Shown one piece after another: positions 26,390 to 29,798 of a stretch of 34,968 nucleotides of DNA. The notes beneath the pieces were generated by a model. It was not told the DNA's origin and did no database searches. It worked only from the letters and a program-made list of their open reading frames with translations. The stretch lies in the NCBI GenBank assembly GCA_002085085.1, contig MZGN01000003.1, forward strand, positions 1 through 34,968, written 5' to 3'. Each line of letters opens with the position of its first letter. Position 1 is the first letter of the stretch. The translations under genes were made by a program, and so were the position numbers. The DNA comes from Helicobacteraceae bacterium 4484_230 (lineage in GTDB: Bacteria; Campylobacterota; Campylobacteria; Campylobacterales; Sulfurimonadaceae).

Positions 26390-28981
26390 TTAGAACAGAT
26401 TGGCGTTGTCGTCAATCCACTTAAAGTACTCGATGATATCTTTGATCTCGTCATCACTCATATGCTGGTTAGGCATTTTGAGGTTGAAGTAGTCGATCAT
26501 CGCTTTGACGTAAGGATCGCTGAATTTTTTCTCTGGGTTTTTGATGAAATCCGCTACCCATTTTTCAGCATTTTCGTGTCGCTGCAGTACACCTGTAAGG
26601 TCTGGGCCGGAGCTGACTTTACCGACAACGTGACAGCCTGAACATCCACCTTCGTTAAACGCACGCTCACCGCGCTCTGCAGAGAGAGACTGCTTGGTAG
26701 CCACTTTTTTGACAAGAGTATCTTTTGCACGGATACCGACGTCTGCAGTTTTAACCATATACTGCCAGATCATGTTTTCAAACAGGATCGCTTTGTCGAG
26801 ATCGCCCGCTGCAACTGCCTCGTCTGATTTTTTCTTCTCGGCAGGGATCTTGCCGTACTGGTCAAGGGCATCCACAACAAGGTTTTTAACTACAGGATAT
26901 TTCTCATAGTGGTTCTCTTTCAGGAACTTGACAACACTCTGAATGACGGCATCTGTAGCAGCATTTACAGCTACTGTCTTGTCATACTCTGCCTTAAGCT
27001 CCTCTGGAGACATTGTTTTCATTTTCAGTTTCTGAGCCGAAACATATTTTTTGTTCGGATCTTTAACCATAAGATAACCCATCATCTCCAGGTGAAGTGC
27101 TGAACAGAACTCTGTACAGTAGTAAGGGAAAACACCTTCGATGTCTGCAATGAAGTTGATCGCTGAAGTCTCACCCGGCTCGAGTGAAGCATGAACATCA
27201 TAATGGTCTACGGTAAAGCCGTGAGTCTCATCCTCTGCTCTTTCAAGGTTGGTCAGATAGATGGTAACATTGTCACCCTTGTTGACTGTAATGCGCTCCG
27301 GATTGATGTGGGAGCGAACCATTGTCGCATACACTTTTACATTGTTTCCGTCACGCTCGATACGCTCTTGTCCCGCAAGAGTTTTACCCTCATGGATCTT
27401 ACCTGTTTTGGTGTTTGTACCCATTTTGTAGCGTACTTCCGGATGCAGTTTGCTTGCACGGATAGCAACAGCCTGGTGAGGTTCGCCCAACGGTAGAGGC
27501 ATATCGACCAGCAGGTCCATTTTCTTACCGCGGATATCGATCAGCTGGTGGTTTTGCGGATGCAAAGGACCAACCGGATTGAAACGGTCAATGGCAAGTT
27601 TGTTCAGCGCGATGATATATTCACCCTGAGGATCTGCCGATTTGCCTTCCATTCCACATAAGTGGCCGATGTTGTAGTGAACATTGACTTTATCAAGAAC
27701 TTTTAGAGTCTTGTAGTTCCACTTTACGACCTGGCTGTCAACATACAGTGAAGTATAGATCTCGCCGTCCACATTGGAGTACTGGTTGTGCAAAGGCCCA
27801 AGACCCAGCTCAACTTGACCATGGAGAGCTTTTTTCATATCCAAAATAGGGATACCATATGGATCTCTTCCGGCAAAGTCCTTGTTTTTGATCAGTTTTT
27901 TGATCTTTGGCCAGCTATATACGGATGCATGTGTATCAAGCTTACCACAAACAGTGATGTAGTTACCGTCAGGTGAAACATCCACTCCGTGAGGTGATTT
28001 TGGCTCCGGGATCAGGAACAGTGCGTTATTTTTGACCGCGACATCCATCGGAACGACTCTGTGGCCGTTTATGACTTTGACATTTTTCTTGTCTTTTGCC
28101 AATTTTGCCAGTTTTTCCCAGTTGTATACATGCAGGAAGTCGGTGTCGTTACGGCTACATCCGGCTTCGAACGGCGGCATGCCCACTTCGATACCGCCGG
28201 TATACATCTCTGAGTTGAAAGAGTTGGTAAATCCCCATCCGTGTGATGCGTTTTTACCGGCATCGCTCAAGTCCTGCATATATGGAGGCATCTCTATAGT
28301 AAATGATGATTCCGGATGGATGCGCCCCTCTTTAGGGTTGAAATCCCATACCGTCACACCACCGCGGTAAGTCTCTTTATACTCTTCTATCGGGTGGTAG
28401 TTGTTGTCATAAGGTGCGGCATACTGGCATGCCTCAAGGATCCACTCGGAGTTTTGCGTGAAGAACGCACCACCGTGATCCGATTTGAAGATTGGGTTGA
28501 CGACGATCTGTTTGGTTTCGAAGTCCAGCAGGTCTATAACGGCAATACGCGGGTTGGCTTTGTCGTTGATGATCAGCCATTTACCGTCATATTTTCCATC
28601 TTTTTCGGAAAGCGCAGGGTGGTGTGTATCACCCCAGTTGATCTCACGTCCGCGGATATTACCCTGGCGCAGGATCTTCGTAGAGTCCACATCATATCCA
28701 TACCCCTGCCATGGTTCCGGCGTAAATACGGCGATGTATTTCAAAATTCTCATCGACGGAACACCGTAGACGATCATCTGTCCTGATTGTCCTCCAGAAC
28801 TGAAGACGATGTAGTCTTCACGACCGCCCGTCGGGGTGTAGGTCTTTGCCGCGCGGATAACATCGTTTTCTGTCAATCCACGTTCTTTCATCACTTTTTC
28901 CAGGGTACCGCTTGCAGATACAGCTGTTGCAGCCAGTGCGGTTCCCAGAAGCAGCGATGAAAGTTTGTTAAGATTTTTCAT
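26390..28981 (-). CDS. nosZ: Nitrous oxide reductase with C-terminal cytochrome c domain (atypical/clade II cNosZ)
   Basis: 863 aa; Sec-type signal, WGDTHHPALSE, CuA motif CTEFCSALHLEMMG, heme motif CSGCHVVG near the C-terminus; AAGGAG SD. Confidence 0.97.
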   Translation of the reverse strand: MKNLNKLSSLLLGTALAATAVSASGTLEKVMKERGLTENDVIRAAKTYTPTGGREDYIVFSSGGQSGQMIVYGVPSMRILKYIAVFTPEPWQGYGYDVDSTKILRQGNIRGREINWGDTHHPALSEKDGKYDGKWLIINDKANPRIAVIDLLDFETKQIVVNPIFKSDHGGAFFTQNSEWILEACQYAAPYDNNYHPIEEYKETYRGGVTVWDFNPKEGRIHPESSFTIEMPPYMQDLSDAGKNASHGWGFTNSFNSEMYTGGIEVGMPPFEAGCSRNDTDFLHVYNWEKLAKLAKDKKNVKVINGHRVVPMDVAVKNNALFLIPEPKSPHGVDVSPDGNYITVCGKLDTHASVYSWPKIKKLIKNKDFAGRDPYGIPILDMKKALHGQVELGLGPLHNQYSNVDGEIYTSLYVDSQVVKWNYKTLKVLDKVNVHYNIGHLCGMEGKSADPQGEYIIALNKLAIDRFNPVGPLHPQNHQLIDIRGKKMDLLVDMPLPLGEPHQAVAIRASKLHPEVRYKMGTNTKTGKIHEGKTLAGQERIERDGNNVKVYATMVRSHINPERITVNKGDNVTIYLTNLERAEDETHGFTVDHYDVHASLEPGETSAINFIADIEGVFPYYCTEFCSALHLEMMGYLMVKDPNKKYVSAQKLKMKTMSPEELKAEYDKTVAVNAATDAVIQSVVKFLKENHYEKYPVVKNLVVDALDQYGKIPAEKKKSDEAVAAGDLDKAILFENMIWQYMVKTADVGIRAKDTLVKKVATKQSLSAERGERAFNEGGCSGCHVVGKVSSGPDLTGVLQRHENAEKWVADFIKNPEKKFSDPYVKAMIDYFNLKMPNQHMSDDEIKDIIEYFKWIDDNANLF

Positions 28982-29002
28982 TTTCCACTCCTTAAATAGT
29001 TA

Positions 29003-29067
29003 TGCCCAAATCCAACATTTAAGTACAAATCCATCACGAACATGTACTTAAGCGTTAAATCCGGGCA
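29003..29067 (-). ncRNA. Candidate cis-acting leader hairpin of nosZ mRNA
   Basis: Arms 29003-29027 and 29043-29067; nosZ-sense pairing is 19 Watson-Crick + 5 G.U + 1 C.A mismatch over 25 positions, with a 15-nt loop. Confidence 0.6.
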
Positions 29068-29160
29068 ATCAGCCTAATCAACTGAACTTATCAGACTTAT
29101 AAGAGAGTTTATAGAGTATCTACTGTCAACAAACTTAAAAAAGTAGCTGTTTTTTTAAAA

Positions 29161-29190: not shown

Positions 29191-29214
29191 TTGACAATAT
29201 TTGACAATATTTGA
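29191..29214. repeat. 10-bp tandem repeat TTGACAATAT x2 plus TTGA
   Basis: ttgacaatatttgacaatatttga. Confidence 0.6.
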
Positions 29215-29273
29215 AACTTTAAATAGCGGCAGCGGGGTGTAATCCCCTTAAAGTTTTTTAGATTTTTTAAAGC

Positions 29274-29798
29274 CTAATAAAATCTGTGTATCTCTTCCAT
29301 AATATTATGAAATTCTACATCTTTACCTTTTTCTTTCAGGAAAGAGTCAAGATATTTTTCTGCAGCTTCGACACTCTCGTTTTTCTCTATTTCAAGCAGT
29401 TTTTCATAGAGTGAAGAGATAATCTCTACCACATGTTTTGAAACTGCTTTTCTATGTGCCGTATATCCGAAGACATTTCCGGTAGTTGGATCTTTTTTGA
29501 TGGAAAACTCGGTAAACACCCAGTAGTAGCGGCCGTCTTTAGCAAGATTTTTGATCACGGCATTGATATTTTTACCGGCTTTAACGCGCTCCCACAGCAG
29601 CTTGAATACGACTTTGGGCATATCGGGGTGGCGGACTATGCTGTGGGGCTGACCCACAAGTTCACTCTCGCTGTAGCCCGAGACTTCCATAAAGTAGTCG
29701 TTACAATAAGTTATGACTCCCTTTTCGTCAGTTTCGCTGATCAGATAGCGTTTAGGGTCAAGTATTATCTCTTCATTGATTGGTTCATGTTTTTTCAA
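29274..29798 (-). CDS. PAS domain (Aer-like) sensor protein
   Basis: 174 aa; DEKGVITYCNDYFMEVSGYSESELVGQPHSIVRHPDMPK...YYWVFTEFSIKKD. Confidence 0.82.
   Translation of the reverse strand: MKKHEPINEEIILDPKRYLISETDEKGVITYCNDYFMEVSGYSESELVGQPHSIVRHPDMPKVVFKLLWERVKAGKNINAVIKNLAKDGRYYWVFTEFSIKKDPTTGNVFGYTAHRKAVSKHVVEIISSLYEKLLEIEKNESVEAAEKYLDSFLKEKGKDVEFHNIMEEIHRFY

What the first reader, a model, noticed from the sequence alone, without database searches (positions are those of the whole stretch)
29003..29067. Long hairpin in the nosZ mRNA leader, with strand-asymmetric G.U compatibility
Seen in sequence: TGCCCAAATCCAACATTTAAGTACA (29003-29027) and TGTACTTAAGCGTTAAATCCGGGCA (29043-29067) form a 25-nt-arm inverted repeat with a 15-nt loop. 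Six arm positions are not Watson-Crick. In the nosZ-sense RNA five of these are G.U pairs and one is C.A; in the antisense RNA only one is G.U and five are A.C-type mismatches. That asymmetry is what selection on RNA structure in the nosZ direction would leave. The structure ends about 22 nt before the AUG and just upstream of the AAGGAG SD. Inference: an mRNA stabiliser, attenuator or regulated leader for nosZ.
Basis: partly seen in the sequence, partly recalled or inferred. Interest (0 to 1): 0.72.

Follow-up and report, generated by a model that had tools for sequence, protein, structure and literature searches.

The report
Stem-loop leader of nosZ mRNA
The messenger RNA for the N2O-destroying enzyme NosZ in this bacterium begins with strong folded hairpins, and related bacteria keep a hairpin at the same place although its letters have changed, which suggests a protective cap that makes the message last longer; it is probably a new example of a known trick.

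Summary
A 25-nt-arm inverted repeat (29003-29067) lies between the nosZ promoter region and its ribosome-binding site. In the nosZ sense it pairs 24 of 25 arm positions (5 G.U, 1 C.A; -32.7 kcal/mol, z -8.8) and is the strongest of 121 gene leaders in 285 kb of this genome. Together they fill the leader from the homology-inferred start site (29098) to the Shine-Dalgarno.

Of 130 distinct nosZ leaders from Campylobacterota relatives, many carry a stem-loop at the same place with unrelated sequence. Where a Crp/Fnr box fixes the likely start, the hairpin begins at -1 to +6 in 54% of leaders (6% in shuffles). In 31 alignable leaders, 8 of 12 pairs show compensatory changes (0/500 shuffles). A model of that motif hits the nosZ leader in 10 of 16 genomes, with one marginal hit elsewhere; Rfam has no match.

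Best reading: a 5' stem-loop that stabilises the mRNA against RppH/RNase J, as shown for Helicobacter pylori vacA. The RNA structure is well supported; the stabilising function is inferred. The long hairpin itself is known from one genome. New member of a known kind.

The parts
29003..29067 (-).
   Evidence: pair probabilities near 1
29071..29097 (-). H1: small hairpin AGUCUGAU/AUUAGGCU at the inferred 5' end of the mRNA; also forms in same-genus L021
   Evidence: weak on its own (-6.3 kcal/mol, z -1.7)
29098..29098 (-). inferred nosZ transcription start (A of AAGTCTG), by homology with L021, where it lies at Crp/Fnr box + 48, and with L003/L005 (within 1 nt)
   Evidence: rule from PMC11539149; not mapped
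29099..29146 (-). promoter region; holds TTGACA (29124-29129) and TATAAA (29108-29113) but no Crp/Fnr box with fewer than 3 mismatches, unlike the relatives
   Evidence: not a canonical spacing
28988..28993 (-). Shine-Dalgarno AAGGAG of nosZ, outside the stems
26390..28981 (-). nosZ, clade II nitrous oxide reductase with C-terminal cytochrome c domain

Best explanation
The nosZ mRNA leader of this Campylobacterota (Sulfurimonas/Sulfurovum-like) bacterium is a structured 5' element: a small hairpin at or near the 5' end (H1), then a long hairpin (H2) that ends just before the Shine-Dalgarno. Shown: the fold, its strand preference, and, in relatives, a stem at a fixed distance from the promoter box kept by compensatory change. 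Inferred: the transcript starts at about 29098; the double-stranded 5' region hinders RppH and the 5'-3' exonuclease RNase J; the mRNA of this long respiratory gene is thereby stabilised while the ribosome-binding site stays outside the stems. The stems act as structure rather than as sequence, so no specific ligand or protein is needed.
For: Fold and z-score; first of 121 leaders in own genome. In 83 relatives with an exact TTGA-N6-TCAA box and a leader of at least 36 nt, the strongest hairpin starts at -1..+6 of box+48 in 54% against 6% (max 12%) in shuffles; the 48-nt rule comes from Nitrosophilus labii nap/nor/nosB (PMC11539149). Covariation: 8 of 12 pairs changed on both sides, 0/500 shuffles, all slid registers far lower. 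Unrelated but paired sequences in closer kin: L006/L007/L008/L184 and L003/L005. Pooled wobbles 136 G.U to 61 A.C against about 58% G.U in shuffles. Hairpin 3' end a median 18 nt from the ATG. RNase J present, no RNase E/G above cut-off. Precedent: H. pylori vacA stem-loop at +4 to +30 raises mRNA half-life (PMC4843948).
Against: No transcript or decay data. The window lacks the Crp/Fnr box, so its start site rests on homology; from 29098 the strong H2 starts only at +32 and the hairpin at the very 5' end, H1, is weak (z -1.7). H2 is known from one genome; the same-genus relative L021 has a different long stem, so H2's own pairs cannot be tested for covariation. Eight box-driven leaders are only 18-31 nt long, too short for a comparable stem, so it is not essential everywhere. 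Mean sense z over all leaders is modest (-1.47 against -0.76 antisense).
Confidence: 0.6

Rival explanations
1. Translation-side role: the stems do not guard against decay but hold the leader compact and keep a single-stranded landing stretch around the Shine-Dalgarno, setting ribosome access and thereby NosZ output.
For: The stems end at a fixed short distance before the ATG (median 18 nt, IQR 17-21) directly before the Shine-Dalgarno.
Against: Hairpins are also fixed relative to the promoter box; in the window the Shine-Dalgarno can pair with early coding sequence, and mean Shine-Dalgarno openness over the leaders is only 0.50.
Confidence: 0.15
2. Regulated element: the stem is bound by a protein or small RNA, or senses a condition (Cu, N2O, nitrate), and so controls nosZ after transcription starts.
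For: The Sulfurimonas-type motif is confined to nosZ at the sensitivity used and partly conserved in sequence (UUUGAGUAU).
Against: Stem and loop sequences differ freely between genera; no Rfam match; H2 pair probabilities near 1 leave no competing fold; no U-run for attenuation.
Confidence: 0.12
3. The inverted repeat works in DNA (operator or cruciform), or is a chance or relic repeat without a role in RNA.
For: The inverted repeat also exists as DNA, and the antisense fold is significant too (z -5.6); H2 itself is known from one genome only.
Against: The sense fold is far better; pooled G.U excess in the nosZ sense; covariation through G.U intermediates in relatives; position downstream of the predicted start; single copy.
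Confidence: 0.1

Closest known systems
Helicobacter pylori vacA 5' UTR stem-loop (PMC4843948)
   Same: Same phylum, no RNase E; stem-loop at the 5' end of the mRNA (+4 to +30) with pairing often maintained through substitutions; disrupting it cut half-life 1.6-fold and the re-paired mutant was like wild type.
   Different: Different gene and sequence; vacA has 80 nt between stem and ribosome-binding site, nosZ about 10; the window has two hairpins; no function has been tested for nosZ.
E. coli ompA 5' stem-loop (own knowledge) and B. subtilis 5' stabilisers (5' 'roadblocks', PMC3997798)
   Same: 5' structure or roadblock that shields an mRNA from 5'-end-dependent decay.
   Different: E. coli acts through RNase E; here RNase J would be the enzyme.
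Crp/Fnr-type (Nss) promoters of Campylobacterota denitrification genes (PMC11539149)
   Same: TTGA-N6-TCAA box 48-49 nt before the start site; the box is found in most nosZ leaders here.
   Different: The passages read do not describe a leader hairpin; N. labii nosZ has a start site only 15 nt from the ribosome-binding site; the window's own box is lost.

Membership tests
5' stem-loop mRNA stabiliser (vacA/ompA type) | Stem-loop at or within a few nt of the mRNA 5' end | tested here: inconclusive
   Relatives: predicted yes, 54% against 6% in shuffles. Window: H1 at +2 and H2 at +32 only if the start is 29098, inferred by homology.
5' stem-loop mRNA stabiliser (vacA/ompA type) | Structure rather than sequence is conserved | tested here: met
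   Sulfurimonas-type set: 8 of 12 pairs with changes on both sides, 0/500 shuffles. H2 itself not testable (one genome).
5' stem-loop mRNA stabiliser (vacA/ompA type) | Ribosome-binding site lies outside the stem | tested here: met
   SD 28988-28993, stem base 29003. With 40 nt of coding sequence the SD is predicted to pair with that instead.
5' stem-loop mRNA stabiliser (vacA/ompA type) | A 5'-end-dependent decay enzyme is present | tested here: met
   RNase J family 631 bits in G000; no RNase E/G above cut-off, in a genome 66% complete.
5' stem-loop mRNA stabiliser (vacA/ompA type) | Disruption shortens and re-pairing restores mRNA half-life | not testable with these tools
   Needs an experiment.
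Riboswitch or other described RNA family | Match to a curated RNA family | tested here: not met
   No Rfam match at gathering score; only chance-level microRNA-type hits, E 0.16 and up.
Intrinsic terminator / attenuator | G+C-rich stem followed directly by a U-run | tested here: not met
   None found; the stem is followed by UAACUAUUUAAGGAG.
   No match in the window at E <= 5: same place and kind, not the same sequence family.

The most novel reading that the evidence does not exclude
A nosZ-specific cis-acting RNA element of Campylobacterota whose stability or protein binding is adjusted by copper, N2O or nitrate, giving post-transcriptional control of N2O reduction.
Probability: 0.12. Interest if true: 0.75.

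Novelty: new member of a known kind. Interest (0 to 1): 0.47.

Why it matters
NosZ is the only known biological sink of N2O. A covarying leader structure that recurs before nosZ across Campylobacterota would add a post-transcriptional layer to a system that the papers read here discuss in terms of Crp/Fnr-type promoters, and a stem that can be broken and re-paired is a simple handle for testing how nosZ mRNA lifetime sets N2O reduction.

Tried and rejected
Rfam search of the window and of six relatives' loci: nothing. Terminator/attenuator: no U-run. Repeat or mobile element: single copy. MAFFT alignment of all leader types together gives no consensus fold, because the stems are not homologous letter by letter; only the Sulfurimonas-type subset could be tested for covariation. 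MAFFT alignments of the closest kin (A2, A3) misalign the arms, so these were compared species by species. A terminator for the upstream PAS-domain gene was looked for at 29200-29275: only a weak fold (z -0.6). No paper on nosZ leader hairpins or nosZ start sites in Sulfurimonas was found in the library searched.

Full report
Observation. The arms 29003-29027 and 29043-29067 form a 25-nt inverted repeat with a 15-nt spacer. On the nosZ strand 24 of 25 arm positions pair, five of them as G.U, with one C.A mismatch, and four more pairs form in the apical part. The fold is -32.7 kcal/mol (z -8.8, none of 200 shuffles as good) in the nosZ sense against -18.8 (z -5.6) in the antisense. Among 121 gene leaders from 285 kb of the same genome it is the most stable. 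The 5' arm is single copy. The gene behind it is a clade II nosZ with nos_propeller, cupredoxin and cytochrome c domains (the clade assignment is from general knowledge of the cytochrome-c-bearing type). The 5:1 wobble asymmetry alone is only suggestive (two-sided binomial 0.22).

What was missed. The transcript start was inferred by homology. In the same-genus relative L021 an exact Crp/Fnr-type box (TTGACCTATATCAA) lies 48 nt before AAGTCTGAATAAGTTCA. 48-49 nt is the distance from exact boxes to start sites reported for napA, norE and nosB in Nitrosophilus labii (PMC11539149). In L003 and L005 the same rule lands within 1 nt of the first A of the same AAGTCTG. The window has AAGTCTGATAAGTTCA at 29098 but has no such box. 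H1 alone is weak (-6.3 kcal/mol, z -1.7) but forms in L021 too.

Relatives. 130 distinct nosZ leaders were collected. On the 113 available first, the leader is more structured in the sense direction (mean z -1.47) than antisense (-0.76) or further upstream (-0.62). Ninety-one have an exact box in the searched range, and 83 of these have a leader of at least 36 nt. In these 83 the strongest hairpin between box and Shine-Dalgarno begins at -1..+6 of the predicted start in 54%, against 6% (maximum 12%) in shuffles, and ends a median 18 nt before the ATG. A typical form is UCAUUUGAGUAU...AUACUCAAAGGA. Some leaders have two hairpins, as in the window (L003, L005, L021, L077, L082, L088). Eight box-driven leaders are too short to hold a comparable one.

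Selection on structure. In 31 alignable leaders 90.5% of pair cells are standard pairs and 8 of 12 pairs have changes on both sides (G-C to A-U, U-A to C-G through U.G). None of 500 shuffles reaches these values or the covariation score, and registers slid by 1-3 columns fall to 29-53% paired. In the genus of L006-L008 and L184 the loop GAGGGGUU is constant while the arms change together, for example GC/CG to AU/UA next to the loop. In a strand-neutral search for stems, wobble-type departures from Watson-Crick in the leaders are 136 G.U to 61 A.C (69%); five shuffles pooled give 58%, the region further upstream 40%. The sequences are related, so these counts overstate independence.

Specificity. 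A covariance model of the Sulfurimonas-type leader (R1) was run on 16 whole genomes. Ten gave one significant hit each, in every case at the nosZ leader; an eleventh gave one marginal hit (E 0.076) elsewhere. The model does not match the window: the window's stems are analogous in place, not homologous in sequence. Rfam has no match. napA leaders of the same genomes often begin with small hairpins, in part with a second one, so the arrangement may be a wider habit of Crp/Fnr-driven respiratory genes.

Mechanism. The closest tested case is the vacA stem-loop of Helicobacter pylori at +4 to +30: disrupting it cut mRNA half-life 1.6-fold, the re-paired mutant was like wild type, and the authors propose protection from RppH and RNase J (PMC4843948). 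The window's genome has RNase J and no RNase E/G above cut-off, although it is only 66% complete. I therefore take the nosZ leader stems as mRNA stabilisers. Shown: fold, position, covariation in relatives. Inferred: start site in the window, protection from decay, benefit for NosZ output. A role in ribosome access, or as a regulated element, remains possible.

Limits. There are no RNA data here. H2 is known from one genome. Its distance from the inferred 5' end (about 32 nt) is larger than in most relatives, and if the start is really 29098 the strictly 5'-terminal protection would rest on the weak H1, with H2 as a second barrier.

Noticed in passing
L240-L260 (napA leaders): napA mRNAs of several Sulfurimonas-type genomes are also predicted to begin with a small hairpin (GUUAAUGGACACCUUAAC) at box+48; L240 has a second hairpin that L241 and L242 lack between otherwise identical flanks, a clean gain or loss of a hairpin.
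   Followed up: partly
window 29099-29146: The Crp/Fnr box present in the same-genus relative and in most other relatives is absent from the window's nosZ promoter, which suggests a changed regulator input.
   Followed up: partly
genomes G008, G228, G256, G265, G381: Several Campylobacterota genomes carry two nosZ genes, one about 80% and one about 70% identical to the window's NosZ.
   Followed up: no
window 28942-28993: The nosZ Shine-Dalgarno and start codon are predicted to pair with the early signal-peptide coding region.
   Followed up: no
window 29274-29798: A PAS-domain protein (174 aa) is encoded directly upstream of nosZ on the same strand, its stop about 290 nt before the nosZ start; no clear terminator lies between them.
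   Followed up: partly
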